DNA from: Campylobacterales bacterium
GTDB taxonomy: Bacteria; Campylobacterota; Campylobacteria; Campylobacterales; Sulfurimonadaceae
Assembly: GCA_026390075.1 (NCBI GenBank)
Contig: JAPLGP010000029.1
Span: 26,692-90,691, forward strand
Reading direction: 5' to 3'
Length of the DNA stretch: 64,000 bases
Both the position numbers and the translations under genes were made by a program. Shown here piece by piece: positions 1,593 through 64,000 of this stretch (positions within the stretch are counted from its first letter, which is position 1; each line of letters begins with the position of its first letter). Under the pieces are notes generated by a model. It was not told the DNA's origin. It did not search any database and saw nothing but the letters and a program-made list of their open reading frames with translations.

Positions 1593-1623
1593 CCACATGC
1601 CACAATTTTGACATGGCATGTGG
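1593..1623. terminator. Inverted pair of the GGCATGTGG word, probable bidirectional terminator
   Basis: TTCCACATGCCA (1591-1602) and TGGCATGTGGAA (1614-1625) are perfect inverted copies separated by 11 bases, giving a 12-bp stem. The pair sits between the convergent ends of the GGDEF-EAL gene and the fabL-like gene. This arrangement matches uptake-sequence pairs that double as terminators in Neisseria and Haemophilus. No long T run follows, so termination strength is uncertain. Confidence 0.6.
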
Positions 1624-1633
1624 AAATTGCTAT

Positions 1634-2401
1634 TTATTGAAAAGTAGTTCCACCATCGATAACGATTGTTTGACCAGTGAGCCATGAAGATTCATTGCCA
1701 CATAAAAAGAGACATGCACCAGTTAAATCTGTAGCCTCGCCCATGCGTGAGAGAGGAGAACGGCGAACCACTTCACTTTTTACTTCTTCATAATTTGGAA
1801 ATGCTTTGAGTGCGTCTGTGTCGATTGGACCGCCACTCACTGCATTTACGCGGATATTTTTTTCGCCAAGTTCAGCAGCAGCGTAGCGAACCATCGCTTC
1901 AACGGCCGCTTTGTTTGTTCCATGCCCTGCATAGTTTGGCGTGTAAACTAGGTTACCAGTTGAACTCATACTTATGATACTTCCACCACCCACTTTTTCC
2001 ATTCTCTTCGCTGCCTCTTGTGCGCCAACTACAAAAGCATCCACAGTCGCAGTATAGATGTTGTTTAGCCCTTTTGGTTTGAGTCGCATAAATGGACCAA
2101 AGCCACCAACAACAGCTCTTCCGGAGATAATAGCGTTAGATATAAAATAATCAAGTCTATCAAAATCTTCATCAAAAAGTTTATATACATCTTGATAGGT
2201 TAAGGGCTCTAAAATATCGAGTTTATACGCTCTACACTTCACACCATATTGCGCTTCCACATCCGCAATAATTTTATCTGCAGTATCAGCGTTTGAAGCG
2301 TAAGTAAATGCAACATTACAACCTTTTTGTGCGAAAGCGTAAACGATAGCTTTACCAATCCCCCGTGTTCCGCCACTTACAAATAGAGTTTTTCCTTGCA
2401 T
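1634..2401 (-). CDS. fabL: Enoyl-ACP reductase, FabL-like short-chain dehydrogenase
   Basis: This is an NAD(P)H-dependent short-chain dehydrogenase, most likely reducing trans-2-enoyl-ACP in fatty acid elongation. The glycine-rich cofactor loop is GGTRGIG near the start, and the YxxxK region appears as YAGHGTNK. The stretch VNAVSGGPIDTDALKAFPN closely resembles the matching stretch of Bacillus FabL, as does AQEAAKRMEK. I place the start at 2401 (protein MQGKTLF) because AAAGGA lies seven bases upstream and the dapA stop is one base before it; a longer version from 2422 would overlap dapA. It is the last gene of pyrD-M16-dapA-fabL. A homologous gene follows dapA in C. jejuni, where it has carried a steroid-dehydrogenase label. 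The substrate is inferred from family resemblance. Confidence 0.8.
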   Translation of the reverse strand: MQGKTLFVSGGTRGIGKAIVYAFAQKGCNVAFTYASNADTADKIIADVEAQYGVKCRAYKLDILEPLTYQDVYKLFDEDFDRLDYFISNAIISGRAVVGGFGPFMRLKPKGLNNIYTATVDAFVVGAQEAAKRMEKVGGGSIISMSSTGNLVYTPNYAGHGTNKAAVEAMVRYAAAELGEKNIRVNAVSGGPIDTDALKAFPNYEEVKSEVVRRSPLSRMGEATDLTGACLFLCGNESSWLTGQTIVIDGGTTFQ

Positions 2402-2402
2402 G

Positions 2403-4595: not shown

Positions 4596-4596
4596 A

Positions 4597-5655
4597 TTAT
4601 TTTCTATTTGCACCGATAGCTTGAGTGATATTTGTATATCCATCCGTTTTTAAGAGTTCAATCAACCCTAAATTTACATCTCTAATCATATCAGGACCAT
4701 GAAACACAAGACCGCTATAGATTTGAACAAGCGAGGCACCTGCTTTTATGCGTCTGTAAGCTTCTTCGGCAGAGTCGATTCCACCAACGGAGATAAGTAT
4801 TGTTTTTCCATAAAGTTCCGCAGCTATTGCGTCAAAAATCTCAAAACTTTTCTCTTTTAATACAGCACCGCTTAACCCGCCAATATCTTTTGGGTTTTTA
4901 ACAAGCGAATAATCTATCGTAGTATTTGTAGCGATGATACCGTCCGCCCCTTTTTCAACAGCCATTTTTGTAAGAGCAACGGCATCTTCTTTGCTCATAT
5001 CAGGAGCAATTTTAAGTAAAATCGGTTTCTTTGTGATGGCTTTAGCTTCGGCAAAAAGTCTTGTGATAAACTCCTCATTTTGTAAATCTCGCAGACCTGG
5101 AGTGTTTGGTGAAGAGATGTTTATAACCAGATAATCTCCCAAAGAGTGGAGAGCTTTTATGAGCGTTGTGTAGTCATTTATAGCTTCGCTCTCAGGTGTG
5201 AGTTTATTTTTACCGATGTTTACACCGATAGGAGTTGTGTATGGATAGACTTTTTTGAGTTTTTGCTGTGCTTTGAGTAAACCATCATTATTAAAACCCA
5301 TGGCATTTTGAAGCGTCTCTTCTTCCACATGCCGAAACATTCGTGGTTTTGGATTTCCTTCTTGTGGTTTTGGCGTAACCGTTCCGATTTCGCTAAATCC
5401 AAAACCGAGTATTTGTACACCTCGAACCATTGTAGCATTTTTGTCAAATCCCGCACCAAGACCGACTGGATTGTAAAAAGTACGACCAAAAAGTTCTTGA
5501 TTTAAAATTTCATCGGCTATAAAGTGAGAGCTAAGAAATGCGTTAAAAGGCATCTGACAAAAGTTTGGAATTCGAAGAACACATTCAGCTAAATGGTGAG
5601 CAGATTCGGGCTGGAGTTTAAAAAGAAAGGGCTTAATGGCTTGATAATTTATCAT
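4597..5655 (-). CDS. pyrD: Dihydroorotate dehydrogenase (quinone), class 2
   Basis: PyrD oxidises dihydroorotate to orotate in pyrimidine synthesis and passes electrons to membrane quinones. The N-terminal helix rich in Phe, Leu and His marks the membrane-associated class 2 enzyme. FMN-site sequences GLGAGFDKNA, MGFNNDG, NISSPNTPGLRDLQ and VGGIDS are present, and 352 residues is the usual length. It is the first gene of the leftward operon. A minus-strand TATAAT lies about 32 bases upstream, overlapping the -10 of the divergent DJ-1 gene. One copy of the dispersed word (5325-5333) writes RHVEE here. Confidence 0.96.
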   Translation of the reverse strand: MINYQAIKPFLFKLQPESAHHLAECVLRIPNFCQMPFNAFLSSHFIADEILNQELFGRTFYNPVGLGAGFDKNATMVRGVQILGFGFSEIGTVTPKPQEGNPKPRMFRHVEEETLQNAMGFNNDGLLKAQQKLKKVYPYTTPIGVNIGKNKLTPESEAINDYTTLIKALHSLGDYLVINISSPNTPGLRDLQNEEFITRLFAEAKAITKKPILLKIAPDMSKEDAVALTKMAVEKGADGIIATNTTIDYSLVKNPKDIGGLSGAVLKEKSFEIFDAIAAELYGKTILISVGGIDSAEEAYRRIKAGASLVQIYSGLVFHGPDMIRDVNLGLIELLKTDGYTNITQAIGANRK

Positions 5656-5686
5656 TTATGTTTTATTCCACTTTTAAAATTTACAG

Positions 5687-5694
5687 ATTATACT
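5687..5694. promoter_or_regulatory. Overlapping divergent -10 elements, pyrD and DJ-1 gene
   Basis: The bases 5687-5692 read TATAAT on the minus strand, about 32 bases before the pyrD ATG. The bases 5689-5694 read TATACT on the plus strand, about 39 bases before the chosen DJ-1 start. The two elements share four bases, so RNA polymerase could occupy only one promoter at a time. Campylobacterota housekeeping promoters depend mainly on the -10 box, so no -35 is needed for the call. Confidence 0.5.
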
Positions 5695-5732
5695 AAAATA
5701 AAGGTAAAATTATGATAAACAAGGAGTTGCTC

Positions 5733-6299
5733 ATGAAGAATGTAAAAGTATTAGTTCCTTTGGCATGTGGATTTGAAGAGATTGAAGCGGTGAGTATCAT
5801 TGATGTTTTGAGACGAGCAAAAATAGAAGTATTGGTTGCTTCTTTAGATGAAAAAGCTTTTGTTTCAGGTGCGCATGGCATTACTGTTCAAGCAGATTTG
5901 GAGCTTATAGATGTTGATGTCGATATGCTGGATATGATAGTTCTTCCTGGTGGCTGGGGTGCAACTAAACTTCTTGCAGGAGATAAAACTATACAAAATA
6001 TTTTACAAGAGATGGATAAAAAAGGCAAAAATATTGGAGCAATTTGTGCTGCTCCGTTTGCTCTACATAAAGCGGGAGTTTTAAAGAAAAAATACACCTG
6101 TTTTCCATCCATCGAGCAACAAATACGAGAAGATGGCTATATGAATGATAGTGCAATGGTTGTAGAGGATGAAAATATTATGACATCAAGAGGACCTGCT
6201 ACGGCACTTTGTTTTGCTTTACAAATCGTTAAAAAGTTGAGAGGTGAAGAGATGTTTTTGAGTTTAAAAAGTGAGCTTTTGGCTGATTTTTGTGAGTAA
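5733..6299 (+). CDS. DJ-1/PfpI family protein (YajL-like)
   Basis: This is a small cytoplasmic DJ-1 superfamily protein, likely a glyoxalase, deglycase or redox chaperone of the YajL/ThiJ type. The nucleophile elbow is GAICAAPFAL with the reactive cysteine, and the partner glutamate is in CGFEEIE near the N-terminus. I choose the ATG at 5733 because AAGGAG lies seven bases before it; an earlier ATG at 5712 adds seven residues without such a site. The protein is 188 residues, normal for the family. The dispersed word at 5762-5770 writes the ACG just before the conserved glutamate. Confidence 0.9.
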   Translation: MKNVKVLVPLACGFEEIEAVSIIDVLRRAKIEVLVASLDEKAFVSGAHGITVQADLELIDVDVDMLDMIVLPGGWGATKLLAGDKTIQNILQEMDKKGKNIGAICAAPFALHKAGVLKKKYTCFPSIEQQIREDGYMNDSAMVVEDENIMTSRGPATALCFALQIVKKLRGEEMFLSLKSELLADFCE

Positions 6300-6335
6300 A
6301 TTCTTGTTATTTTAAGTCACTTGTCTCTTTGTTTT

Positions 6336-6359
6336 GGCATGTGGAAAAATCCACATGCC
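6336..6359. terminator. Inverted pair of the GGCATGTGG word between convergent genes
   Basis: TTGGCATGTGGA (6335-6345 region) and TCCACATGCCAA form a stem of about 11 bp with a loop of a few A residues. It lies between the stops of the DJ-1 gene and the heme-PilZ receptor, which converge. It is the tightest of the paired copies and should form a stable hairpin in RNA from either side. Confidence 0.65.
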
Positions 6360-6377
6360 AAAGATAAAGAAATACTT

Positions 6378-8356: not shown

Positions 8357-9790
8357 TTAAACTTGTTCCCAAAAAGTTCCCTGAGGCGTATCCATAATTG
8401 TAACTCCACATGCCAAGATTTCATCACGAATCTTATCCGAGGTTAGAAAATCTTTTACTTTTTTAGCTTCATCTCTTAAAATAATTAACTCAGTTATTTT
8501 TGCTTTAGTTTTTTCATCAATTCCACTTTGAAAATACTCAAAGGGATTTTTTACTCCAAAGCCTAAAATTTCCTCTATGTACGCCAAGTTTGAGAGTGTC
8601 GCAGTTTTTAGCTCTTTATGTTTTCCTGCTGTGTCTAGCGTTTCGTTGGCATGTGTAATCATCGCATCTATGAGAGCCAATGCGTTTGAGATATTCATAT
8701 CATCACTTAAAGCTTTTAAAAGTTCTTCAGTAAAAAGAGTTTTTTCATTTTCAAAAGCAAGCCCAAAAAGGCGTTTTTTGAGTCTGTAAATTTTATCGAG
8801 GCGTTTTTTTGAAGCACTCAAATCCTCTTCATTAAAATTAAAATTACTTCTATAGTGTGTACTTAACAGATAAAATCTCAGCACTTCCCCATCATAAATT
8901 TTCAGAGCATCTTTTAAGAAAAAACTATTTCCTAAACTTTTTGACATTTTTTCGCCATCAATATTTACAAAACCGTTGTGCATCCAGTAGTTTGCGAGTG
9001 TATGGTTTGTTCCACATCTTGTTTGTGCCGCTTCGTTTTCATGGTGAGGAAAAAGCAAATCTGCTCCGCCGCCGTGGATATCCACAGCAAACTTGGTACC
9101 CCAAGGGCATTTGTCGCTTTGCTCGGGCACATGTTCCTTTATAAAGTGTTTTTCTATCATCGCAGAACATTCCACATGCCATCCTGGGCGACCTGCACCA
9201 AAAGGAGAATCAAAAGTCAGAGTGCCATCTTTTACATTTTTCCATAGAGCAAAGTCAGCACTGTTTTTCTTGTGTGATGAGTTTTGGACACGGTTTATTT
9301 TGTCCTCTTCCTCTTGAACTCTTTTACTAAGGCTAAGATATTCGCTATCACTTGAAGTGTCAAAATAGACATCGCCATCCACCGTTTTATAAGCGTGATT
9401 TGAGTCGATAAGCTTTTGAATGAGCGTAAACATAGCATCCAAACTCTCAGTTGCTTTTGGCTCTAAATCAGGTCGAGAAACGCCGATAGCTTCCATCTCT
9501 TTATGAAAAGCATTGGTATAAAACTCTGTAATCTCTTGAATAGTTTTGTTTTGCTCTTGTGCCTTTTTGATGATTTTATCGTCAATGTCGGTGATGTTTC
9601 GAGCGTAAGTGACAGCATAACCATTTGCTTTTAAGACACGAGTAAGTAAATCAAAAACCAAAGCACTCTTGGCATGACCTAAATGTGCATCATCATAAAC
9701 AGTTGGTCCGCAAACATAAAGAGTTGCTTTGCCCTCATTTTGAGGAGTAAAAAGTCGTTTTGTTTTTTGTACTGAGTCGTATATATACAT
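8357..9790 (-). CDS. cysS: Cysteine--tRNA ligase
   Basis: CysS charges tRNA-Cys in the cytoplasm. The class I signatures are HLGHA in place of HIGH near residue 35 and KMSKSLGN near 270. The zinc ligands are seen in CGPTVYDDAHLG, WHVECSAM and LLFPHHENE. At 477 residues it has the normal length. Two dispersed-word copies fall in it: one writes the family-conserved WHVEC at the zinc site, the other LACG near the C-terminus, where the family is variable. The next gene upstream is the toxin gene, 12 bases away. Confidence 0.97.
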   Translation of the reverse strand: MYIYDSVQKTKRLFTPQNEGKATLYVCGPTVYDDAHLGHAKSALVFDLLTRVLKANGYAVTYARNITDIDDKIIKKAQEQNKTIQEITEFYTNAFHKEMEAIGVSRPDLEPKATESLDAMFTLIQKLIDSNHAYKTVDGDVYFDTSSDSEYLSLSKRVQEEEDKINRVQNSSHKKNSADFALWKNVKDGTLTFDSPFGAGRPGWHVECSAMIEKHFIKEHVPEQSDKCPWGTKFAVDIHGGGADLLFPHHENEAAQTRCGTNHTLANYWMHNGFVNIDGEKMSKSLGNSFFLKDALKIYDGEVLRFYLLSTHYRSNFNFNEEDLSASKKRLDKIYRLKKRLFGLAFENEKTLFTEELLKALSDDMNISNALALIDAMITHANETLDTAGKHKELKTATLSNLAYIEEILGFGVKNPFEYFQSGIDEKTKAKITELIILRDEAKKVKDFLTSDKIRDEILACGVTIMDTPQGTFWEQV

Positions 9791-10108: not shown

Positions 10109-10353
10109 CAAAAACTTCTTATTTCATCGCTAAAAGTGCCATTTTTTGCAACTCTTTCGTTATAGCTGTGGATGGAACTTTTATTTTGAGACGCCCAGTT
10201 TTTCATCTCTTCTTCTTTAATAATCTCTATAAGTGTTTTTTCTAAGGAGTTAGAGATATTAATGTGAAGTTCTTTTGCTTTTTTGAGCAAATCAGAATTT
10301 ATACTAAGATTGGTCGCTCTTTTTTTGGCATGTGGATTATACAACGCTGTCAT
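10108..10353 (-). CDS. ccdA: CcdA-family antitoxin
   Basis: This 81-residue protein has the CcdA plan: a ribbon-helix-helix DNA-binding N-terminus (KKRATNLSINSDLLKKAKEL) and a C-terminal tail that would wrap the toxin (NWASQNKSSIHSYNERV, GTFSDEIRSF). It should neutralise the downstream toxin and repress its own promoter. AGGAG lies upstream of the ATG. A dispersed-word copy at 10327-10335 writes NPHAK right before the DNA-binding strand. Confidence 0.88.
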   Translation of the reverse strand: MTALYNPHAKKRATNLSINSDLLKKAKELHINISNSLEKTLIEIIKEEEMKNWASQNKSSIHSYNERVAKNGTFSDEIRSF

Positions 10354-13859: not shown

Positions 13860-14419
13860 TTGTAGGTTTAAGAGGTGTTGTTGCGTATAAAGAACCAGCT
13901 TTTGTGCATGTGGAAGTGAGTGGTGTTGTATATGAAGTTTTTATCTCTTTGCAGACATTTTCAGCACTTCCACATGCCGAGGTAAAACTTTTTACATCCC
14001 AAATCATTCGTGAAGATGCACACCTTTTGTTTGGATTTTTAGAGATGAGTGAAAAAAAACTCTTCGAGAGACTTATTAAGATAAATGGCGTTGGTCCAAA
14101 GGTTGCCATCGCAATTTGTTCGACTTATACACCCTCTCAGTTCGCAGCGGCGATAAATGCAAAAGATATCAAAGCGATTCAAAAAGTCCCTGGAATAGGT
14201 CCAAAAAGTGCAGGGCGCATACTTGTTGAGCTCAATGGTTTTGATGAGGAGATGTTAAGTGTCTCTTCTCCTAAGACAAAATCTTTCAATGAAGCAAGTG
14301 AGGCACTTGAATCTTTAGGATTTACAAAAGCAAAAATACTCAAAGCTCTTAGCGCATGCAGTGGAAGTGACACCGCTGCACTTGTTAAAGAAGCACTAAA
14401 ATTATTACAAACCATATAA
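13856..14419 (+). CDS. ruvA: Holliday junction branch migration protein RuvA
   Basis: RuvA binds four-way DNA junctions and, with RuvB, drives branch migration. The OB-fold start MIVGLRGVV is followed by two helix-hairpin-helix motifs, LIKINGVGPKVA and IQKVPGIGPKSAGRI, and a C-terminal RuvB-binding domain ending KEALKLLQ. At 187 residues it is normal. The ATG overlaps the upstream stop by four bases. The dispersed word at 13970-13978 writes LPHAE in the OB fold, and a one-mismatch copy at 13905 writes HVEVS. Confidence 0.96.
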   Translation: MIVGLRGVVAYKEPAFVHVEVSGVVYEVFISLQTFSALPHAEVKLFTSQIIREDAHLLFGFLEMSEKKLFERLIKINGVGPKVAIAICSTYTPSQFAAAINAKDIKAIQKVPGIGPKSAGRILVELNGFDEEMLSVSSPKTKSFNEASEALESLGFTKAKILKALSACSGSDTAALVKEALKLLQTI

Positions 14420-14430: not shown

Positions 14431-15468
14431 TTGAAATTAACTATTTTATTTGGAGGTGCTAGTTACGAACACGAAATTAGCATCGTAAGTGCGATAACTC
14501 TCAAAGCAAAGTTATCTGGATTTGATTTAAGTTTCGTTTTTTGTGACCAAGACCACACTTTTTATTTTGTGCCCTCTTCAAAAATGAAGGCGACTACTTT
14601 TTCAAAAGGCGAACATAAAAAAATGCCAAAGTTGAGCCTTGAAAATGGTTGTTTTGCCCAAAAAACTATGTTTTCAACTGTGAAACATAAAGATTTAGTG
14701 ATAAATCTTATCCATGGTGGTGATGGCGAAGATGGAACTGTTCCTGCACTTTTAGACTTTTTTTCTATCAAATATATTGGTCCACGCGTGAATGCAAGTG
14801 TATTTTCGTATGACAAAAGATATACGAAGTACCTCTGTGAAGCAAAAGGAATAAAAAGTGTTTCGTATGAAACTTTAAGTGCAAAAGAGCATAAAGATGT
14901 CACTTTGTCGTATCCAGTAATCATCAAACCTGCAAGTTTGGGTAGCTCTATCGGTGTGAGCATAGTACGAGATGAAAGTGAACTTGATTATGCGCTGGAC
15001 AGTGCTTTTGAATTTGACAATAATGTACTCGTTGAGCCATTTATAGAGGGTGTAAAAGAGTATAACTTAGCTGGATTTATGGCAGATGGGAAGATGCATT
15101 TCTCCATAGTAGAAGAGCCTCAAAAAAATGAGTTTTTAGATTTTGAAAAAAAATATATGGATTTTTCAAGAAGTGAACAAGTTTTAAAAGCAGATATCAG
15201 TGAAGTGTTAGTGAGTAAACTCAGAACAAATTTTGAAAAAATTTATAGAGGTCTTTTTGAAGGTGCTCTGATTCGATGCGACTTTTTTGTTATAGATGGA
15301 GAGGTGTATTTAAATGAGATAAACCCGATTCCAGGGTCTATGGCGAACTATCTTTTTGAAGATTTCAAAGGGTGCATTGAAGCGTTGTCAAAATCACTTC
15401 CACATGCCAAGAGAGCAAAAGTTTCTTACGAGTATATTCATTCAATTTCCAGTGCCAAAGGGAAATAA
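14431..15468 (+). CDS. ddl: D-alanine--D-alanine ligase
   Basis: Ddl joins two D-alanines for the peptidoglycan stem peptide. ATP-grasp sequences are clear: LFGGASYEHEIS at the N-terminus, KPASLGSSIGVS, VEPFIEGVKEY and NEINPIPGSM near the end. The start is TTG at 14431 with an AAGGATAT upstream. At 345 residues the length is normal. The stop overlaps the next start as TAATG. A dispersed-word copy at 15400-15408 writes LPHAK in the C-terminal tail. It sits with murF, which uses its product. Confidence 0.96.
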   Translation: MKLTILFGGASYEHEISIVSAITLKAKLSGFDLSFVFCDQDHTFYFVPSSKMKATTFSKGEHKKMPKLSLENGCFAQKTMFSTVKHKDLVINLIHGGDGEDGTVPALLDFFSIKYIGPRVNASVFSYDKRYTKYLCEAKGIKSVSYETLSAKEHKDVTLSYPVIIKPASLGSSIGVSIVRDESELDYALDSAFEFDNNVLVEPFIEGVKEYNLAGFMADGKMHFSIVEEPQKNEFLDFEKKYMDFSRSEQVLKADISEVLVSKLRTNFEKIYRGLFEGALIRCDFFVIDGEVYLNEINPIPGSMANYLFEDFKGCIEALSKSLPHAKRAKVSYEYIHSISSAKGK

Positions 15469-16202
15469 TGGCTCTAAAGTCGATTCAATACAATCAACAT
15501 ACGCTCGAAATAAGTTATGAAATTTTAAATCCACATGCCAAGGTTGACTTGATAATCTTGCATGGTTGGGGAAGTAACAAAAACTTGATGAAACAGGTTT
15601 TTTCGCCTTATATGGATAGTTTTCGTCATATTTATATTGATTTACCAGGGTTTGGAAACAGCACTTGTAACACTCCACTTAAAACCGCGGACTATGCAAG
15701 AATAGTGGAGCTTCTCATGGTGCATATCAATGCCTCAAAAGATATTATTTTAGGGCATTCGTTTGGTGGGAAAGTGGCACTTTTGCTTGAGCCGAGAGTT
15801 TTGGTTCTTGTTGCGAGTGCAGGGATTTATGTAAAAAAATCTTTCAAAGTCCAAGCAAAAATCGCACTTTTTAAACTCCTTAAACTCTCTGGATTTACCA
15901 TGCTTAGAAACTTTTTTGTTGCAGAAGATGCAAAAAGTTTAAGTGAACCGATGTATCAAACTTTTAAAAATGTTGTCAATGAAGATTTTAAAAATGAATT
16001 TGCGGGTTTTGAAGGAAAAGCACTTCTGTGTTGGGGAAAATCTGACACGGCAACGCCTCTTAGTTCTGCAAAAAAGATAGATAAACTTATCAAAGACTCT
16101 TCGTTAGCAGTGTATGAGGGTGACCACTACTTTTTTATGAAAAATGCAGAGGATATTTCTAAAAAAATAGAAACAACATTTTTAAAAACTTTGGAGCATT
16201 AA
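15468..16202 (+). CDS. Alpha/beta hydrolase
   Basis: This 244-residue cytoplasmic protein has the alpha/beta hydrolase fold. The oxyanion sequence is LHGWGSN, the nucleophile elbow GHSFGG carries the catalytic serine, the aspartate is in GKSDTATP and the histidine in GDHYFF, so it should be active as an esterase or related enzyme. It lies between ddl and murF with overlapping or near-touching ends, an arrangement I recall in C. jejuni too, which hints at a link to cell-wall metabolism; the substrate is unknown. The dispersed word at 15531-15539 writes NPHAK just before the first core strand. Confidence 0.87.
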   Translation: MALKSIQYNQHTLEISYEILNPHAKVDLIILHGWGSNKNLMKQVFSPYMDSFRHIYIDLPGFGNSTCNTPLKTADYARIVELLMVHINASKDIILGHSFGGKVALLLEPRVLVLVASAGIYVKKSFKVQAKIALFKLLKLSGFTMLRNFFVAEDAKSLSEPMYQTFKNVVNEDFKNEFAGFEGKALLCWGKSDTATPLSSAKKIDKLIKDSSLAVYEGDHYFFMKNAEDISKKIETTFLKTLEH

Positions 16203-16203: not shown

Positions 16204-17649
16204 ATGCAAGAATATGAAATTTTAATCGCGTTTATTACAAATGTTCTTTTTGTTATGGTTTTGGGTTGGTATTTAATCACAAATCTTCAATGGTATGACT
16301 ATAAACTCTCGCGTGTGCTACTCAAACATCACAAGCCACAGTGGCATTTTTTTTACTTTTTTATCCCTTTTATAGCCTATTACACGATGGGACAATTTTT
16401 TGTTATTTTCTTTTATCTCGCTCTTCTACCAGCTATGTTTCTTTGGCATAGAAAACTCGATAAAAAGCTTGTTTTAACATGGCGAGTGAAAAGATTTCTC
16501 ATTCTTTTAATCTCTTTGGTACTTTTTTTCGATGTGCTTTGTACACTCAAGTCGGCATGTGGAATTTATGGTGTATTTATGCCTTTAGCTTTAGCGTATA
16601 TCTTGAGTACGATGGTGGAAAAGTTTCTTTTTATGGTCTATAAAAAAGAGGCAAAAAAGAAACTCTTTGAGATGAAAAACTTGCAAATCATCTGTATAAC
16701 GGGAAGTTACGGAAAGACAAGTATTAAAAATTTTGTTGCGCAGATTTTGGCTAAAAAATACAAAGTTTATGCAACACCGCGAAGTGTTAATACGCTTGGC
16801 GGAATTATGGGTGACATAAACAACGCACTTCCAGCAGATAGTGAGATGTATATTTGTGAAGCGGGAGCGAGAGAAATGGGCGATATTTATGATATTACTA
16901 CATTTATCGAACCTCAAACGGTGGTTGTTGGTAAAGTCGGCGCGGCGCATATCGAGTACTTTAAATCGTTACAAAATATCATAGCAACAAAGCTTGAAAT
17001 CATGCAATCGCCTCGTTTAGAGAGAGCCTTTATCCATACCTCTGTAACCAACGAACCACATGCCAAAGTTACATTTTTTGGGGATGATATAATAAATCCA
17101 CATGCCACACTTGATGGAGTAGATTTTGATTTGAAAATTGATGATGAAGTTTTATCTCTGCATACAGATATTTTAGGTGAATTTCAAAGTATGAACATCG
17201 CTGTAGCGGTGAGAATCGCTAAAAAATTTGGCATGAGTAATGAAGAGATAATCAAAGCTGTAAAAGAGTTAAAACCCGTAGAACACAGACTCCAAATGAT
17301 AAAAGCTGGTGGAAAAATCATAATAGATGATGGCTACAACGGAAACATTGACGGAATGCTCGAAGGTGTACGACTCTGCTCACTTCATGATGGACGCAAA
17401 GTCATCGTAACACCAGGTTTAGTTGAGAGTTCTGATGCGTTAAATCTAAAACTGATAGAAGCCATAAATAAAGTTTTTGACATCGTTATAGTGACAGGAA
17501 GTCTTAATGCAAAACTCTTTGAGAAAAATTTGGATGTAAAAACAAAAATAATGCTAAGTGATAAATCAAAACTTGTAGATGTATTGGCAGAGCAAACGAA
17601 GGCTGGAGATATCATTTTGTTCGCAAATGATGCACCGAATTTTATTTGA
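16204..17649 (+). CDS. murF: Membrane-anchored UDP-MurNAc-tripeptide--D-Ala-D-Ala ligase
   Basis: MurF adds D-Ala-D-Ala to the UDP-MurNAc tripeptide. Unlike most MurF proteins, this one begins with about 150 residues holding four or five hydrophobic segments, so the Mur ligase is tethered to the inner membrane. The ligase then shows the ATP loop GSYGKTS (about 166-172), SVNTLGGIMGDIN and a C-terminal domain with RLQMIKAGGKIIIDDGYNGN. Three dispersed-word copies lie inside (16554, 17056, 17098), the last two only 42 bases apart and writing EPHAK and NPHAT in a variable loop. The neighbouring ddl supplies its substrate. Confidence 0.93.
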   Translation: MQEYEILIAFITNVLFVMVLGWYLITNLQWYDYKLSRVLLKHHKPQWHFFYFFIPFIAYYTMGQFFVIFFYLALLPAMFLWHRKLDKKLVLTWRVKRFLILLISLVLFFDVLCTLKSACGIYGVFMPLALAYILSTMVEKFLFMVYKKEAKKKLFEMKNLQIICITGSYGKTSIKNFVAQILAKKYKVYATPRSVNTLGGIMGDINNALPADSEMYICEAGAREMGDIYDITTFIEPQTVVVGKVGAAHIEYFKSLQNIIATKLEIMQSPRLERAFIHTSVTNEPHAKVTFFGDDIINPHATLDGVDFDLKIDDEVLSLHTDILGEFQSMNIAVAVRIAKKFGMSNEEIIKAVKELKPVEHRLQMIKAGGKIIIDDGYNGNIDGMLEGVRLCSLHDGRKVIVTPGLVESSDALNLKLIEAINKVFDIVIVTGSLNAKLFEKNLDVKTKIMLSDKSKLVDVLAEQTKAGDIILFANDAPNFI

Positions 17650-17673: not shown

Positions 17674-18165
17674 ATGAAAGACATTTTATACGCACCATGG
17701 AGAGATGAGTATATTGCTGGGCATGAATACGATGGGTGTGTTTTTTGTCATATAAGTTCACACGCACAAGAGGATGAGGAGTTGCAGGTGCTTTATCGAG
17801 ATGAGCACTGTTTTATTGTTATGAACCGATACCCTTATACTCCGGGGCATTTTATGATAATTCCACATGCCCATACTGATAAACTTGAAACGCTCAATTC
17901 TGCTGTTTGGTTGCACATGAGTGTATTGGCTCAAAAATGTGTACGGCTTTTAAAAGAGGGGTTTCATGCTCAGGGTGTAAATATAGGAATGAACCTTGGA
18001 GCTGCCGCTGGAGCAGGGATAGCGGAACATATCCACATGCATTTAGTCCCTCGTTATAACAGAGATACAAATTTTCTAACTTCTATTGCTCAAAATAGGG
18101 TTTATTCCACAGATTTTTTTAAAATATACAAAAAACTTCAAGCTTTAATTCCTAAATATTTATAG
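17674..18165 (+). CDS. HIT-family nucleotide hydrolase or phosphorylase
   Basis: This 163-residue protein has the histidine triad HIHMH followed by LVPR, which hydrolyses or phosphorolyses nucleotide-phosphate bonds. The CVFCHI near the N-terminus suggests a zinc-bound, Ap4A phosphorylase-like HIT subfamily. Conserved NRYPYTPGHFMIIPHAH precedes the triad; the dispersed word at 17863-17871 coincides with PHAH, a position where the family itself favours P-H-H/R. The natural substrate is not known. It follows murF by 24 bases and probably shares its transcript. Confidence 0.9.
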   Translation: MKDILYAPWRDEYIAGHEYDGCVFCHISSHAQEDEELQVLYRDEHCFIVMNRYPYTPGHFMIIPHAHTDKLETLNSAVWLHMSVLAQKCVRLLKEGFHAQGVNIGMNLGAAAGAGIAEHIHMHLVPRYNRDTNFLTSIAQNRVYSTDFFKIYKKLQALIPKYL

Positions 18166-18899: not shown

Positions 18900-18908
18900 C
18901 CACATGCC
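18900..18908 (-). repeat. Single intergenic copy of the dispersed word
   Basis: CCACATGCC lies 13 bases after the Sel1 stop and before the convergent antiporter stop. No inverted partner is near, so unlike the paired copies it cannot form a strong hairpin. Confidence 0.7.
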
Positions 18909-20189: not shown

Positions 20190-20215
20190 GGCATGTGGAT
20201 TTATTTCCACATGCC
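20190..20215. terminator. Inverted pair of the dispersed word, probable guaB terminator
   Basis: TGGCATGTGGA (20189-20199) and TTCCACATGCCA (20205-20216) face each other with a short AT loop. On the minus strand it lies 12 bases past the guaB stop and ahead of the antiporter gene, the place for a terminator. The stem is about 10 bp. Confidence 0.6.
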
Positions 20216-44949: not shown

Positions 44950-44980
44950 CCACATGCCATGTCAAAGTTGTGGCATGTGG
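44950..44980. terminator. Inverted pair of the dispersed word between convergent genes
   Basis: TTTCCACATGCCA and TGGCATGTGGAAA form a 13-bp perfect inverted repeat with an 11-base loop that also holds ATGTCAAAGTT. It lies three bases after the methyltransferase stop and before the convergent periplasmic-protein stop. The loop can extend pairing, making this the longest such stem in the window. Confidence 0.65.
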
Positions 44981-46333: not shown

Positions 46334-46986
46334 AGGCAGCTCTTTATGGTTTTTAAATCGTTGAGTGTTATTTTTTTTAACTCAGGGTTTCTCAGTAAAA
46401 ATTGAGGATGATACATCGGAATAAGTTTATACTTTTTACAGTCTATAACATGTCCTCTTACATTTTCAAAGTTTTCATGTTCACCCATAACTTTATAGTA
46501 GGCATCATTCCCAAGCGTTACAATTACTTTTGGTTTGACAAATTCTATTTGTGAAAAAAGATAGGATTTACAAGAATCCCATTCTGACGAAGATGGAATA
46601 TTTGAGTTGAGTGTTTTACATTTTATGGCATGTGTAAAATAGACATCTTCAATGGTTAAACCTAAAACATTTTCACACATATTTTTCAAACTCTCGCCTG
46701 AGCGACCAGTGTAGTAGCCATTTTGTGAGTCGTCTGAATGTGAAACAGTAAAATCAATAATCATCAAATCAGCACTTTCGTTTCCATAACCACTCATGCT
46801 TTGCGTTCTTGATTTACTCAAATCACAAAGATGGCATGTGGAAATAGTTTGGCAGAGGTGTTTTAAGTTCATAGGCACATCATCTGAATTTTTTTCATTC
46901 ACAGAAAATGGGTCACTGTACTCAAATCCGAGTGCTTTTAGGCGGTAAAGGTTTTGAAGTAAAACAAGATTTTGAAAAGACTTCAA
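46330..46986 (-). CDS. Uracil-DNA glycosylase superfamily protein (type 4-like, altered active site)
   Basis: This 218-residue protein resembles family 4 uracil-DNA glycosylases, which carry a 4Fe-4S cluster. Cys residues TCHLC, IKCK and SSEWDSCKSY match that pattern, and YHPQFLLRNP is the C-terminal HPS-like motif. However, where active enzymes read GEAPG, this one reads DFTVSHSDD, so the catalytic loop is changed. It may bind or process DNA differently or be inactive. The dispersed word at 46833-46841 coincides with the first Cys motif STCHLC. Confidence 0.75.
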   Translation of the reverse strand: MKSFQNLVLLQNLYRLKALGFEYSDPFSVNEKNSDDVPMNLKHLCQTISTCHLCDLSKSRTQSMSGYGNESADLMIIDFTVSHSDDSQNGYYTGRSGESLKNMCENVLGLTIEDVYFTHAIKCKTLNSNIPSSSEWDSCKSYLFSQIEFVKPKVIVTLGNDAYYKVMGEHENFENVRGHVIDCKKYKLIPMYHPQFLLRNPELKKITLNDLKTIKSCL

Positions 46987-47547: not shown

Positions 47548-47556
47548 CCACATGCC
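47548..47556 (-). repeat. Single intergenic copy of the dispersed word
   Basis: CCACATGCC lies 16 bases past the small membrane protein stop, in the 31-base space before the convergent GGDEF-EAL stop. It has no inverted partner. Confidence 0.7.
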
Positions 47557-51693: not shown

Positions 51694-53361
51694 CTACCGA
51701 ACAGCAACTCGTTTCATAGGTGGTTTATAGTTCGGGTCTTTTCCCTCTACTGTCCATAACTTTTTACTCAAAGCACTCGTAGCTTTAAAAAAATTCTCGT
51801 CTATTAAATCTAAAGATTCAAGTTTTGGAAAAAATCGTTCCAATAGCTCTTTTTCATACGCAAATTGCTCTTGTTCACTTAAGTTTTTAGTCTCGTTTGG
51901 TAGTAGTTTTAGAGATTGATTTGTTTGAAGATTTGCTAAAAGCCACATGCCAAGAAATCCCATAGAATATTTGTTGAGTATGTGTATGGAAAATTCCTCA
52001 AAGTCCTTGTAACCGCTTTGTTCATAAGTGATAATGATGAGAGTCAGAAGTGCGTGAAGATGCACCAGCGGAACCATTGAAAAAAGCATGCGTCCAACGC
52101 TCACACCATGCGAATGCTCCGCACCGATGAACACTCTCGCACCGCCTTCGGTATCGCCAAAGTTATTTGTTTTTAAACCAATAAGTCCAATGTCTGTATG
52201 ATGATGTCTTGCACACCCTTTTGCACATCCAGAAAAACCAACTTGAATGCGGTGTTTGGCTATAAGTTCAAGTGGAAGATAGATGGTTTCATTTTTAATG
52301 CTCCAAAATGAGTAAGGACAAAGATTTCCTGCACATGCCAAGATTGTCGCACTTTGTTTGGGTGATGCGAAGGGTGTTTCACTTTCTTGAAGTCCAAGTA
52401 AGTATATATTTTGGTCAACTCCGATGCGAATCTCTGCTTTATGTTTTGTTGCGTATTCTGAAATTTGTTGTATCTCATCTGCATTTACGCGTGCAAAATC
52501 TGTATGATAACAAAATGCGTAAGTTCCATCTTTGAGTATTTCACTTTGAGAGAACTCTTTTTTTTCAAGAAGTAACGCTCCAGAACTCTGGAGTTTGTTT
52601 ACATATTGCGTTTGGATAAGTTCTTTGAGTGCGTTCATACCGACAGTCTCAATCATATCAAAGAGACGAATTTTTGCGCGTGAAGTGCGCGGACCATGCA
52701 GATAAAAAGTTTCAACAAAGGCTTTAAAAAAATCAAACACGGCATGTGGAAGTAAAAAGATATCAGCATCCTCTGCCACTTCTGAATTTTTCCCGCCCAT
52801 ATAAACATTAAAACCGAAATTTTCATCTTTTTGTGCCAAAGCAAAATAGATGTCATTGGCAAAAAATGAAGAAACATTCGCACGATTTCCAGAAAGAGCG
52901 ATGGACACTCTTCGTGGAAGCATCCCAACATAGCGAGGATTTTTCAAAATAAACTCTTGCATCTGCATGATAATCGGGTAAGTTTCAATCTCACTATATT
53001 GCCCACGACCATCATAGACATCGGTTACGATATTGCGAATATTATCGCCAAAACTTTGCCATGAAGTAAGACCAAGAGCGTTTATTTGTTTGAAAATTTC
53101 TAAAATATTGTGTGATTCAATGCCATGAAGTTGAATACCAGCTCTCGCTGTAAGAATGATGTGAAGGTTATGTTTTGTCGCAATATCGCCAATAAAAGAA
53201 AATTGCTCTGCGCTTAATCTTCCAGCAGGAATACGAAGTCTGAGCGTAAATTCATCTTCTAAAAAATCAGTTGTGAAGATACCAAAATCTTGAAGATAGT
53301 ACCTATCTCCCTCTCCAAGATTTTCAAAATCAAGATTTTCAAACTCTGATCTTGCATGCAA
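51694..53361 (-). CDS. Siroheme nitrite/sulfite reductase
   Basis: This 555-residue protein carries the siroheme and 4Fe-4S ligand pattern: ACAGNLCPYSFWS gives Cys-x5-Cys and GFSGCAKGCARHH gives Cys-x3-Cys. Two ferredoxin-like half-repeats and the siroheme-binding arginines in TARAGIQLHG and PRRVSIALSGN fit assimilatory nitrite or sulfite reductases. Which substrate is reduced cannot be read from sequence alone. Two dispersed-word copies (51943, 52741) write LGMWL and LPHAV, and it lies upstream of the PBP-like sensor by 23 bases. Confidence 0.9.
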   Translation of the reverse strand: MHARSEFENLDFENLGEGDRYYLQDFGIFTTDFLEDEFTLRLRIPAGRLSAEQFSFIGDIATKHNLHIILTARAGIQLHGIESHNILEIFKQINALGLTSWQSFGDNIRNIVTDVYDGRGQYSEIETYPIIMQMQEFILKNPRYVGMLPRRVSIALSGNRANVSSFFANDIYFALAQKDENFGFNVYMGGKNSEVAEDADIFLLPHAVFDFFKAFVETFYLHGPRTSRAKIRLFDMIETVGMNALKELIQTQYVNKLQSSGALLLEKKEFSQSEILKDGTYAFCYHTDFARVNADEIQQISEYATKHKAEIRIGVDQNIYLLGLQESETPFASPKQSATILACAGNLCPYSFWSIKNETIYLPLELIAKHRIQVGFSGCAKGCARHHHTDIGLIGLKTNNFGDTEGGARVFIGAEHSHGVSVGRMLFSMVPLVHLHALLTLIIITYEQSGYKDFEEFSIHILNKYSMGFLGMWLLANLQTNQSLKLLPNETKNLSEQEQFAYEKELLERFFPKLESLDLIDENFFKATSALSKKLWTVEGKDPNYKPPMKRVAVR

Positions 53362-53444: not shown

Positions 53445-53468
53445 GGCATGTGAAAATTTCCACATGCC
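53445..53468. terminator. Imperfect inverted pair of the dispersed word
   Basis: TGGCATGTGAAA (53444-53455, one mismatch) faces TTTCCACATGCCA (53457-53469). It lies just after the nrdG stop on the minus strand and before the siroheme reductase promoter. The mismatched arm suggests a decaying or half-formed pair. Confidence 0.5.
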
Positions 53469-60928: not shown

Positions 60929-60932
60929 TACA

Positions 60933-62960
60933 ATGAGCAAAACAATGAAGCTCTCTTTTTTATGGCATATGCACCAACCTGATTACAGAGATGCTGATGG
61001 TGTTATGAAGATGCCATGGGTTTTTCTACATGCGATAAAAGATTATTATGATATGCCTTGGACACTCTCTTTATTTCCTACACTTAGAGCAACATTCAAC
61101 CTTACCCCATCTTTAATTGAGCAGTTAAGACTCTATAGTGAACCTCTAAAATATGATTATTTTTTACAACTTTGGAGTAAACATCCATCCGAACTCTCAT
61201 TTGCTGAGAGAGAGTGGGTGATTAAAATCTGTAAATCTCCAAACTATGAGACTATGATTCATCCAATGCCTCGTTTTGCTGAACTTTATGCTCTTGAATC
61301 ACTTGATGATGAGCAGTTTTTGGATTTGCAAATGCAGTTTATGCTCTCTTGGTGTGGTAATTATCTGCGTCAAAATAGTGAAGTCATAAAAAGTATGTTT
61401 ATTCAAGAGAGAGATTATGCTTTTGCTGATAAAGCTCGTTTGTTAAATACGCTTACAACTTTTGTAGGCGAGATACTTCCCTACTATAAAACTTTGTTGC
61501 AAAGCGGAGTTATATCTGTCTCTACAACACCTTATTTTCACCCGATATTGCCACTTCTCATAGATATGGATAATGTACAAAAAGCAAATATTCACACGAA
61601 GCCTCCACAAAATGCTCTCTCTTTTAAAGCCGATGCCATAGAACATGTGAGAAGAGCAATCGCACTCTATAAAGAGACTTTTGATACAGACCCCATTGGC
61701 TTTTGGCCAGCAGAGGGAGCGGTGGATGAAGAGAGCGTCAAGATTTATAAAAATGAGGGTATAAAATGGATTGCAACAGATGAAGCTATTCTTTTTAAAT
61801 CTCTTCATAACACATCAAGAGACAACCTCTATAAACTTTATAATTATGATGGACTTTGTGTTGCTTTTCGTGACCATGGAATAAGTGATTTATTAGGATT
61901 TGATTATAGATTTAAGCCTTCAGATGAAGCTACAGAACATTTTGTCCATACAATTAAATCTATCGCTTTTGATGATGAAGATACGACACTCTTTATTATA
62001 CTTGATGGAGAAAACGCTTGGGAATATTATCCACAAAACGCGTATCCATTTTTTACACAACTTTATGAAAAACTTTCAAATCTCTCTTGGTGTGAAAGCG
62101 TTCGTATGGATGATTTACTTCATGATGAGGTTGCACCACTTCATACACTAAGCCCTGGAAGCTGGATAGGTGGCGATTTTTCGACATGGAGTGGGCATGT
62201 GGAAAAAAATCGTGCATGGGAATTTCTCTTTCAAACACGCCGAGATGTAGATAATTATACGCATGAGATAAATGAACAAAATGCAAAACTCATAGAAAAT
62301 CATTTTTTAGCAGCCGAGTGCAGTGACTGGTTTTGGTGGTATGGGGATGATCATTTTACAGATTTTGCTATGGAATTTGATGCTCTTTTTAGAAAACATC
62401 TTATAAGTATCTATCATCTTTTAAACATGCAACCTCCAGCGGATTTGTTTGAACCTATCATAAAACACAAAAGTACAGCCTCTTTTATGGTACAACCACA
62501 GGCACCTATTTATCCAAAAATTGATGGAAAGTTTTCTTCATTTTTTGAATGGATTGGATGTGGTGTTATCGATGAGAGCCGCCTTTTTTCTACGATGGAC
62601 AGAGCGCGTGGACCTATTCAAACAATTCGTTATGGACATAATGAAACTATGGTTTTTGTAGCTTTTTATGGAGATATTATTCACTTAGAGAAAGAAAAAA
62701 TCACTGTAAATATTATTATTGAAGAGTTATCAGAAGTAGTTTCGTTGAAGTTAAATCAAGAAAAATATCCACATGCCATAATAATGCAAGTAGAGAGTAG
62801 TTTTGAAATTGCTTTGCCAAAAACAATGTTTGCAAAATTACAAAAAGTACATTTGCGTTTTGAGATTGAAGAAGATAAAAAGATTATTCAAACTCTTCCT
62901 GGATTTGGCGCGCTTGAAGTGCAATTAAATGAAGATTACAGCTCTGTCTGGTTTATTTAG
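60933..62960 (+). CDS. GH57 family glucan-active enzyme
   Basis: This 675-residue protein is a glycoside hydrolase family 57 enzyme. The first motif is FLWHMHQPDYRD, the nucleophile Glu261 is in FWPAEGAVDE and the acid Asp358 in ILDGENAWEYY, so both catalytic residues are present. GH57 includes amylopullulanase, alpha-amylase and branching enzymes. The start is four bases after the previous stop. Dispersed-word copies at 62194 and 62769 write GHVEK and YPHAI. Confidence 0.9.
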   Translation: MSKTMKLSFLWHMHQPDYRDADGVMKMPWVFLHAIKDYYDMPWTLSLFPTLRATFNLTPSLIEQLRLYSEPLKYDYFLQLWSKHPSELSFAEREWVIKICKSPNYETMIHPMPRFAELYALESLDDEQFLDLQMQFMLSWCGNYLRQNSEVIKSMFIQERDYAFADKARLLNTLTTFVGEILPYYKTLLQSGVISVSTTPYFHPILPLLIDMDNVQKANIHTKPPQNALSFKADAIEHVRRAIALYKETFDTDPIGFWPAEGAVDEESVKIYKNEGIKWIATDEAILFKSLHNTSRDNLYKLYNYDGLCVAFRDHGISDLLGFDYRFKPSDEATEHFVHTIKSIAFDDEDTTLFIILDGENAWEYYPQNAYPFFTQLYEKLSNLSWCESVRMDDLLHDEVAPLHTLSPGSWIGGDFSTWSGHVEKNRAWEFLFQTRRDVDNYTHEINEQNAKLIENHFLAAECSDWFWWYGDDHFTDFAMEFDALFRKHLISIYHLLNMQPPADLFEPIIKHKSTASFMVQPQAPIYPKIDGKFSSFFEWIGCGVIDESRLFSTMDRARGPIQTIRYGHNETMVFVAFYGDIIHLEKEKITVNIIIEELSEVVSLKLNQEKYPHAIIMQVESSFEIALPKTMFAKLQKVHLRFEIEEDKKIIQTLPGFGALEVQLNEDYSSVWFI

Positions 62961-62969
62961 GAGTTAATT

Positions 62970-64000
62970 ATGCAACACAGAACAACACTTTTATTTGGAA
63001 TTCACATGCATCAGCCTGTTGATAATTTTAAAGAGGTAATTACACATGCCGTAGATGTTTGTTACGCACCCTTTTTTGAAGTGTTAAGTCGTTATCCAGA
63101 TTTTAAATTTTCAGTCCACTGCAGCGGTTGGTTGATGCAACAAATAGAGACCGACCATCCCACACTTTTTAAAACCATACAAGAACTTGCACAAAAAGGG
63201 AGTATCGAATTTTTGAGTGCAGGGTATTATGAGCCGATACTCAGCGTAATTCCCTCTTGTGACCGTGTGGCACAGATAAATAAACTTAGTGAGGACATAC
63301 AAAAGAAATTCAATCAAAAGCCAGAAGGACTTTGGCTCACGGAAAGAGTTTGGGACGCTTCACTCATTCCTGACCTTAAAGAGGCAAATATCGCCTATAC
63401 CGTACTCGATGATTATCATTTTCAAGCCGCTGGTTTTGATGAAGAGATTTTGGATGGATACTACACAACAGAAGAGGGTGGAAAAAGTTTAGCTGTTTTT
63501 CCAATCAGTAAAAAACTGCGTTACGCACTTCCTTTTATAAGCGTTGAGAGTGCGTTGGAGAGTATAAAATCATACAACAAAGAAAATGATTCTGCCGCCA
63601 TTATCTTTGATGATGCGGAAAAGTTCGGCATGTGGCCGGGGACATATAGTTGGGTGTATGAGAAAGGATGGCTTGAAAAATTTATAAGTGCTGTGCTCAA
63701 AGATGAAAATATTATTTGTGAGCATTATGGCGAATATTTTCAAAAACATAAGCCAAGAGGCATCGCCTATTTGCCAAATGTCTCTTATTACGAGATGGGA
63801 GAATGGAGTCTTAGAGCTGATGATGCCCTAAAACTTGAAGCCTTTAAGAATGAAATGGGTGAAGAGCGATACAACAAAGGCGGAGTGAAATTTCTCAAAG
63901 GCGGCATGTGGAAAAACTTTTTTGTGAAGTATGAAGAGAGCAATCGTATCCATAAGCGAATGTTGGAACTCTCAAAGATAAGAGAAGAGATAAACGATAA
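62970..64000 (+). CDS. GH57 4-alpha-glucanotransferase or alpha-amylase, 3' end cut by window
   Basis: The second GH57 gene starts at 62970 with AGGAG upstream and continues past the right edge; 343 codons are visible. The first motif is FGIHMHQPVDNF, the nucleophile Glu125 is in LTERVWDAS and the acid Asp214 in IFDDAEKFGMWPG. These positions match the Thermococcus litoralis 4-alpha-glucanotransferase numbering closely (Glu123 and Asp214). Two dispersed-word copies lie in it: one at 63627 in the conserved FGMWP motif and one at 63903 in GGMWKN. Confidence 0.9.
   Translation, partial: MQHRTTLLFGIHMHQPVDNFKEVITHAVDVCYAPFFEVLSRYPDFKFSVHCSGWLMQQIETDHPTLFKTIQELAQKGSIEFLSAGYYEPILSVIPSCDRVAQINKLSEDIQKKFNQKPEGLWLTERVWDASLIPDLKEANIAYTVLDDYHFQAAGFDEEILDGYYTTEEGGKSLAVFPISKKLRYALPFISVESALESIKSYNKENDSAAIIFDDAEKFGMWPGTYSWVYEKGWLEKFISAVLKDENIICEHYGEYFQKHKPRGIAYLPNVSYYEMGEWSLRADDALKLEAFKNEMGEERYNKGGVKFLKGGMWKNFFVKYEESNRIHKRMLELSKIREEIND

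What the first reader, a model, noticed from the sequence alone, without database searches (positions are those of the whole stretch)
1593..63911. A candidate, apparently undescribed DNA uptake sequence: TGGCATGTGGAA
Seen: 44 exact copies of GGCATGTGG/CCACATGCC, 22 in each orientation, with extended consensus YGGCATGTGGAW. By a hand estimate at 35% G+C, fewer than one is expected. Exact copies clearly outnumber one-mismatch copies (I noticed about 15), the reverse of what drift from a background word gives. About a quarter of copies are intergenic, though intergenic DNA is only some 6% of the window. Known: Neisseria DUS and Pasteurellaceae USS share these properties (10-12 bases, both orientations, intergenic inverted pairs, tolerated in variable parts of proteins). 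To my knowledge Campylobacterota are not known to use one; Campylobacter jejuni uptake depends instead on a methylated motif. Inference: this lineage has biased uptake for this word.
Basis: partly seen in the sequence, partly recalled or inferred. Interest (0 to 1): 0.95.

Follow-up and report, generated by a model that had tools for sequence, protein, structure and literature searches.

The report
New DNA-uptake word in Campylobacterota
A nine-letter DNA word, GGCATGTGG, occurs 1,427 times in this bacterium's genome and stays letter-perfect at nearly all of the same places compared in its closest word-keeping relative; it likely works as a password by which the cells would take in DNA of their own kind, a trait so far described mainly in two unrelated bacterial families.

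Summary
GGCATGTGG occurs 44 times in the window (22+/22-; 0.14 expected) and 1,427 times in the 2.40-Mb genome (backwards control: 2). In a 379-kb sample, exact copies outnumber all 27 one-mismatch neighbours together, 238 to 89. Copies are 4-fold enriched between genes, densest where gene ends meet, often as hairpin-forming inverted pairs. At about 79% flank identity, 17 of 19 copies are exact at the same place in relative G034, but only 1 of 35 in the about equally close G067 and G132 (Fisher 6e-11). So the word is held by a factor acting in trans, which that clade has probably lost. High counts occur only in part of one genus (probably Sulfurimonas); none of 366 sampled phylum genomes outside it exceeds 11. 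ComEC, DprA and a type-II-secretion-like machine are present. Relatives carry related words (AGCATGTGG; perhaps TACATGTA), like Neisseria dialects. Best reading: an independently evolved DNA-uptake sequence. Uptake was not tested and no receptor was identified; priA-linked pilins are candidates, but their tree does not follow the word. No paper listed in seven searches (three partial lists) reports it.

The parts
1593..1601 (-). GGCATGTGG copy; hairpin pair with 1615 (intergenic)
1615..1623 (+). GGCATGTGG copy; hairpin pair with 1593 (intergenic)
5325..5333 (-). GGCATGTGG copy
5762..5770 (+). GGCATGTGG copy (in gene, read as ACG)
6336..6344 (+). GGCATGTGG copy; hairpin pair with 6351 (intergenic)
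6351..6359 (-). GGCATGTGG copy; hairpin pair with 6336 (intergenic)
8406..8414 (-). GGCATGTGG copy (in gene, read as ACG)
9172..9180 (-). GGCATGTGG copy
10327..10335 (+). GGCATGTGG copy
13970..13978 (-). GGCATGTGG copy
15400..15408 (-). GGCATGTGG copy
15531..15539 (-). GGCATGTGG copy
16554..16562 (+). GGCATGTGG copy (in gene, read as ACG)
17056..17064 (-). GGCATGTGG copy
17098..17106 (-). GGCATGTGG copy
17863..17871 (-). GGCATGTGG copy
18900..18908 (-). GGCATGTGG copy
20190..20198 (+). GGCATGTGG copy; hairpin pair with 20207 (intergenic)
20207..20215 (-). GGCATGTGG copy; hairpin pair with 20190 (intergenic)
24265..24273 (+). GGCATGTGG copy (in gene, read as ACG)
24561..24569 (-). GGCATGTGG copy
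24677..24685 (+). GGCATGTGG copy
24962..24970 (+). GGCATGTGG copy
29546..29554 (+). GGCATGTGG copy
30093..30101 (+). GGCATGTGG copy
36340..36348 (+). GGCATGTGG copy
36385..36393 (+). GGCATGTGG copy
36424..36432 (+). GGCATGTGG copy
39302..39310 (+). GGCATGTGG copy (in gene, read as ACG)
39992..40000 (-). GGCATGTGG copy
40010..40018 (-). GGCATGTGG copy
40221..40229 (+). GGCATGTGG copy
41763..41771 (-). GGCATGTGG copy (in gene, read as ACG)
44950..44958 (-). GGCATGTGG copy; hairpin pair with 44972 (intergenic)
44972..44980 (+). GGCATGTGG copy; hairpin pair with 44950 (intergenic)
46833..46841 (+). GGCATGTGG copy
47548..47556 (-). GGCATGTGG copy
51943..51951 (-). GGCATGTGG copy
52741..52749 (+). 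GGCATGTGG copy
53460..53468 (-). GGCATGTGG copy; inverted neighbour of the one-mismatch copy at 53445
62194..62202 (+). GGCATGTGG copy
62769..62777 (-). GGCATGTGG copy
63627..63635 (+). GGCATGTGG copy
63903..63911 (+). GGCATGTGG copy

Best explanation
GGCATGTGG (consensus YTYGGCATGTGGAAWT) is likely a DNA-uptake sequence, a word predicted to be recognised at the cell surface during natural transformation, so that a competent cell would take in DNA of its own lineage in preference to foreign DNA. Shown: the word is present about once per 1.7 kb in both orientations, has few near-miss forms, is held at the same places between diverged species, and is left to decay in one clade as a whole. [quoted passage not shown] the machine pulls the DNA through its secretin, ComEC passes one strand inwards and DprA and RecA bring it into the chromosome. 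Because word-bearing DNA would be taken up more often, recombination would keep restoring and spreading the word (molecular drive). Inverted pairs near gene ends are perhaps also used as transcript-ending hairpins.
For: Abundance: 1,427 against 2 for the backwards word; 238 exact against 89 one-mismatch; 179 coding copies against 9.5 expected with proteins held fixed. Distribution: no local strand bias in the four longest pieces; 25.6% of copies in the 6.1% non-coding DNA, with 18 intergenic inverted pairs, two of which share a copy; 7.2 copies per kb between convergent genes, 2.7 between co-directional, 0.8 between divergent. Conservation: of the sites exact in G000, G034 has 17/19 exact, G031 7/8 and G050 6/8, against 13%, 9% and 2.5% for same-composition control 9-mers. 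Copies inside genes are conserved too: 29 of 35 in five word-keeping genomes, 1 of 34 in G067 and G132. Joint loss: G067 1/14 and G132 0/21, with motif identity about equal to flank identity, and exact/one-mismatch counts inverted genome-wide (G067 179/660, G132 226/749, G123 165/540 against G000 1427/596). Machinery: ComEC in 108 of 114 genomes, DprA in 22 of 23; secretin, T2SSE ATPase, T2SSF and GspG genes in G000, with three further pilins only weakly like GspH/I/J. Two pilin genes lie next to priA, with two small genes between in G000; that is the position of Cj0683, which is needed to start DNA uptake in C. jejuni (PMC10046745). Dialect-like variants: AGCATGTGG in G117 (30 against 11); TACATGTA at three or more times its control in 27 of 135 genomes and in none of the 11 GGCATGTGG-rich ones (my count).
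Against: No uptake or transformation data exist here. No gene was found whose presence tracks the word: the decayed clade keeps the T2SS-like cluster (G067, G132), DprA (G067, G132, G123) and, in G123, an uninterrupted comEC. comEC is broken in G067; in G132 neither dnaB nor comEC was found, probably an assembly gap; so ComEC loss is not shown to be the shared cause. DprA was not found in word-rich G024 (91% complete). The tree of the priA-linked pilins, for the genomes in which they were recovered, does not follow the word. No small ComEA-like protein was found in G000 or G034, the two genomes richest in the word. After the hairpin stems there are at most 7 T in 12 bases, usually fewer, and a terminator scan of window 1-20000 did not exceed its shuffles (14 against 12.0). 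Spacing is random-like (CV 0.96). In two of three TACATGTA genomes examined the word is not enriched between genes (1 of 36, 1 of 21; the third 5 of 22), so its being a dialect is uncertain. G026 says nothing on conservation, since its controls were also 0 of 84.
Confidence: 0.85

Rival explanations
1. The word is a binding site for a chromosomal protein (a Chi-like recombination signal, an FtsK/KOPS-type polar signal, or a nucleoid-organising factor) and is kept by selection on chromosome biology, not by uptake.
For: Such sites can also number in the hundreds to thousands, be conserved in place, and decay together once the protein is lost (recalled), which would fit as well.
Against: Chi- and KOPS-type words are strand-biased (recalled); here the four longest pieces show 22/22, 37/35, 19/23 and 12/13. 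Inverted hairpin pairs between genes, densest where gene ends meet, recall the terminators built of uptake words in Neisseria and Pasteurellaceae (PMC1852404, passages). Variant words between relatives would be unusual for a core chromosome factor (recalled).
Confidence: 0.1
2. The copies are remnants of a mobile or self-replicating repeat (REP/MITE-like) that spread through the genome.
For: High copy number, inverted pairs and intergenic enrichment are also seen in such elements (recalled).
Against: No similarity between copies beyond about 16 bases; 177 of 238 copies are in genes, in all six frame and orientation classes; copies are held exactly at the same place between species, and exact copies outnumber near copies.
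Confidence: 0.02
3. The word is mainly a transcription terminator or RNA-processing element and has nothing to do with DNA uptake.
For: Intergenic copies are densest between convergent genes, and the 16 closest intergenic inverted pairs fold at -16.5 to -28.3 kcal/mol.
Against: 177 of 238 copies are inside genes, 92 against and 85 along the gene's direction, and such in-gene copies are conserved in place: 29 of 35 in five word-keeping genomes, 1 of 34 in G067 and G132. The hairpins mostly lack a strong T tract.
Confidence: 0.01

Closest known systems
DNA uptake sequence (DUS) of Neisseriaceae, read by minor pilin ComP
   Same: 10-12-base word, hundreds to thousands of copies, both orientations, hairpin pairs in terminators, related dialects around a fixed core (CTG there, PMC3630211; possibly CATGT here)
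   Different: Unrelated word; different phylum; no ComP-like receptor identified here; one clade here has ceased to keep the word
Uptake signal sequence (USS) of Pasteurellaceae (predicted receptor ComN/PpdA)
   Same: 9-base word, generally 1,000 or more copies, pairs in terminators (PMC1852404)
   Different: Unrelated word; no downstream AT-rich tracts beyond +12 here; other machinery
Methylated RAATTY requirement of Campylobacter jejuni uptake (CtsM)
   Same: Same phylum; self-DNA recognition; T2SS/T4P-type uptake machine; pilin-like gene beside priA (PMC10046745)
   Different: There the signal is a methylated short degenerate motif, here a long fixed word; methylation was not examined here
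HIP1-type over-represented octamer of cyanobacteria (recalled, from no call)
   Same: A short word greatly over-represented in a lineage; compare palindromic TACATGTA in relatives
   Different: GGCATGTGG is not palindromic and is enriched between genes

Membership tests
Uptake sequences as a kind | Gross over-representation, exact copies exceeding near-miss copies | tested here: met
Uptake sequences as a kind | Both orientations without replication-strand bias | tested here: met
   balanced in the four longest pieces; contig orientation in the draft is arbitrary, so the genome total says nothing on this and whole replichores were not compared
Uptake sequences as a kind | Inverted pairs forming hairpins near gene ends | tested here: met
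   a strong T tract is mostly missing
Uptake sequences as a kind | Carrier has competence machinery | tested here: met
   ComEC, DprA, T2SS-like genes in G000; small ComEA-like protein not found in G000
Uptake sequences as a kind | DNA with the word is taken up preferentially | not testable with these tools
   needs a bench assay
Uptake sequences as a kind | Identified receptor that reads the word | tested here: inconclusive
   priA-linked pilins are positional candidates, but their tree does not follow the word
Neisseriaceae DUS | Word is a dialect of ATGCCGTCTGAA with the CTG core | tested here: not met
   GGCATGTGG and its reverse complement hold no CTG (core from PMC3630211 passages)
Pasteurellaceae USS | Word is AAGTGCGGT or ACAAGCGGT with downstream AT tracts | tested here: not met
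   words from PMC5031613 and PMC3630211 passages
C. jejuni methylated-motif recognition | Uptake depends on CtsM-methylated RAATTY | not tested
   no methylation data; ctsM was not sought
Chi/KOPS-type polar signal | Strong strand bias relative to replication | tested here: not met
   locally in four pieces of 58-120 kb

The most novel reading that the evidence does not exclude
Probability: 0.5. Interest if true: 0.93.

Novelty: new variant of a known kind. Interest (0 to 1): 0.87.

Why it matters
The passages I saw name uptake sequences only from Neisseriaceae and Pasteurellaceae, so whether they are a rare accident or a repeatable outcome of competence is open. An unrelated case in Campylobacterota would make that testable, and the natural contrast found here (a clade that keeps most of the machinery looked at but no longer keeps the word, next to close relatives that do) is a direct handle for finding the receptor. 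It would also mark which species freely exchange genes with each other, and give a practical tag for transforming these bacteria.

Tried and rejected
Mobile repeat: rejected, flanks unrelated beyond about 16 bases. Codon or protein bias: rejected by synonymous permutation. Chi/KOPS: no local strand bias. Terminator only: rejected, in-gene copies are conserved as well. Lipoprotein lipobox as cause (LACG, 21 copies, is second to PHAK, 22, among peptides at in-gene copies): rejected, since most of the 47 copies read as ACG lie well inside proteins. ComEC loss as the cause of decay: attractive because comEC is split by an insertion in G067, but not shown to be the shared cause, because G123 is decayed with an uninterrupted comEC, and G132 lacks hits to both dnaB and comEC, probably an assembly gap. 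priA-linked pilins as the dialect-setting receptor: p162 is 88% identical in G034 and 53% in G067, but the pilin tree mixes words (only pilins fitting a motif pattern were included, so G050 and G051 lack p162), so not supported. ComEA as required reader: not found where the word is commonest. Loss of the T2SS-like cluster: intact in G067 and G132; the one stop seen in GspE is its natural end. The literal-word search of papers held 379 papers, 20 listed, none of whose titles concerned bacterial uptake; the other 359 were not viewed. Searches also listed only part (30 of 43, 25 of 609).
Full report
OBSERVATION. The 44 copies are real (22 per strand; 0.14 expected), with 17 one-mismatch copies besides. 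The window is G000:C5:26692-90691 of a 2,403,259-base draft in 61 contigs, 99.99% complete; it holds 724 + 703 copies, against 1 + 1 for the word read backwards, or one per 1,684 bases. In 379,373 bases sampled from this genome (window included) there are 238 exact copies and 89 copies of all 27 one-mismatch neighbours together. The consensus is YTYGGCATGTGGAAWT; no position outside -4 to +12 carries more than 0.08 bits. The two commonest near misses change the last base.

WHERE THE COPIES LIE. By my own codon-score gene calls the sample is 93.9% coding; 61 of 238 copies are not wholly inside a gene. Between convergent genes there are 7.2 copies per kb, between co-directional genes 2.7, between divergent genes 0.8 (17, 37 and 4 copies; 3 at piece edges). 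Eighteen intergenic inverted pairs of neighbours lie within 60 bases, two of them sharing a copy; the 16 that start within 40 bases of each other fold at -16.5 to -28.3 kcal/mol, with at most 7 T in the next 12 bases on either side. A general terminator scan of window 1-20000 found 14 sites against 12.0 in shuffles. In genes, all six frame and orientation classes occur. With proteins held fixed and synonymous codons permuted, 9.5 coding copies are expected (maximum 15 of 100 runs), and 179 are seen. Strands are balanced in the four longest pieces (22/22, 37/35, 19/23, 12/13). The five shorter pieces are less even (10/6, 7/3, 4/7, 3/8, 3/4), but small. Spacing after merging pairs is random-like (CV 0.96).

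WHO HAS IT. Among 135 genomes of the genus, 12 have more than 200 copies. Among 201 genomes of the family at 80% completeness or more, none of the 87 outside the genus exceeds 21. Among 397 phylum genomes drawn evenly at 90% completeness or more, GGCATGTGGA exceeds 15 only in G000 (1,302), G031 (887), G050 (859) and G026 (71), all of this genus; the 366 outside it have at most 11.

MAINTENANCE AND DECAY. In 30 genomes compared for exact and up-to-one-mismatch counts, 11 have more exact than near copies (G000 1427/596, G034 1393/557, G031 915/407, G050 905/359, G062 893/351, G024 786/358, G051 754/393, G055 623/349, G095 500/281, G053 487/255, G064 411/165). Eleven have the reverse, with 19-226 exact copies (G132 226/749, G067 179/660, G123 165/540, G108 122/861, G056 96/280, G026 90/337, G117 85/557, G131 50/358, G006 27/261, G022 21/244, G004 19/215). 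Eight are at background (1-6 exact). G108 also has the highest backwards control (220), so its near misses are partly chance. In a tree of up to eight conserved proteins, G000, G034 and the clade G067/G132/G123 form one group (support 1.00; inner order unresolved, 0.27).

Aligned at the same places, G000's copies are exact in 17 of 19 cases in G034, 7 of 8 in G031 and 6 of 8 in G050, against 17/131, 6/69 and 1/40 for 9-mers of the same composition. In G067 it is 1 of 14 (control 14/85) and in G132 0 of 21 (21/152). G026 has 0 of 12, but its control is also 0 of 84, so it says nothing. G034 against G067+G132 gives Fisher p = 6e-11. Sites with alignment gaps were set aside (1 in G067, 4 in G132, 1 in G026). 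Other alignments: G062 2 of 2, G051 1 of 3, G123 1 of 5, G131 0 of 2, L001 2 of 6, L002 3 of 4. In G067 and G132 the motif is no more conserved than its flanks (0.778 against 0.756; 0.757 against 0.756). Split by place, in-gene copies are exact in 29 of 35 cases over G034, G031, G050, G062 and G051, and in 1 of 34 in G067 and G132; intergenic copies in 4 of 5 and 0 of 1. Near misses in G067 and G132 are spread over many neighbours, as in decay, whereas in G117 one variant, AGCATGTGG, dominates (30 of 82 near misses; 11 exact), as in a dialect.

OTHER WORDS. TACATGTA reaches at least three times its control in 27 of 135 genomes (my count; up to 848 against 57) and in none of the 11 GGCATGTGG-rich ones. 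It shares CATGT. It is palindromic and, in two of three genomes examined, not enriched between genes (1 of 36, 1 of 21, 5 of 22), so calling it a dialect is a hypothesis. G131 has TACATGTA (271 against 51) plus a decayed GGCATGTGG set, as a switch would leave. G017 has an unrelated word, TGCGTGAG (37 in 60 kb, 1.3 expected); G013 and G009 showed no strong word in 40-60 kb.

MACHINERY. ComEC is found in 108 of 114 genomes of the genus at 80% completeness or more and DprA in 22 of 23 (the miss is motif-rich G024). G000 has type-II-secretion-like genes on two contigs (C54, C38; the counterparts lie together in G034, G067, G132 and G026): secretin and GspG above NCBIfam's cut-offs, T2SSE and T2SSF above Pfam's, and three pilins only weakly like GspJ, GspI and GspH. 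Two pilin genes lie near priA (two small genes between in G000; the pilin directly precedes priA in G031 and G002), with dnaB and comEC in the same 10 kb. In C. jejuni the pilin-like Cj0683, in an operon preceding priA, is needed to start DNA uptake, and uptake uses a T2SS/T4P-type system (PMC10046745, passages and section 15). These pilins vary strongly, and their tree does not follow the word. A small ComEA-like HHH protein was not found in G000, G034, G067, G132, G123, G062, G064 or G095 (G123, G064 and G095 are 65-75% complete); it was found in the other 15. In G067 comEC is split by about 8.1 kb carrying a TnsA-like and a KwaB-like gene; G123's comEC is uninterrupted.

MECHANISM. Shown: abundance, sharpness, placement, conservation and joint decay. 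Inferred: a surface receptor reads the word, uptake is biased, and recombination then spreads and repairs copies. No step of uptake was tested.

LITERATURE. Passages seen in PMC5031613, PMC3630211, PMC12616744 and PMC1852404 treat uptake sequences in Neisseriaceae and Pasteurellaceae. PMC3630211 gives eight Neisseriaceae dialects with a fixed CTG core. PMC1852404 ties such words to terminators. PMC8308473 was seen in passages only. My seven searches listed no paper, by title and start of abstract, that reports such a word in this group; the library is open-access only and holds no preprints, and searches listed only part of what they found.

Noticed in passing
L242:about 5229-13351 (G067:C15): comEC is split by an insertion of about 8.1 kb with a TnsA-like gene, a KwaB (Kiwa-like) gene, a uracil-DNA-glycosylase-family gene and, by eye, a prepilin-like gene without a Pfam match; GTCTC stands at both edges, as a 5-base target duplication would (seen by eye).
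   Followed up: partly
27 of 135 genus genomes: Palindromic TACATGTA is strongly over-represented, and in none of the 11 GGCATGTGG-rich genomes.
   Followed up: partly
G017 stretches L134, L277, L278: A different word, TGCGTGAG, occurs 37 times in 60 kb against 1.3 expected.
   Followed up: no
G051, G055, G062, G095, G117 dnaB: DnaB matches in two parts within single open frames of 826-834 residues, as an intein would give.
   Followed up: no
window:53469-62193: Longest stretch of the window without an exact copy (8.7 kb); it holds an anaerobic ribonucleotide reductase and carbohydrate enzymes (phosphorylase, nucleotidyl transferase/phosphomutase, GH57).
   Followed up: partly
L173:13700-14695 and counterparts: The two pilins near priA vary far more than their neighbours and their tree conflicts with the species tree.
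   Followed up: partly
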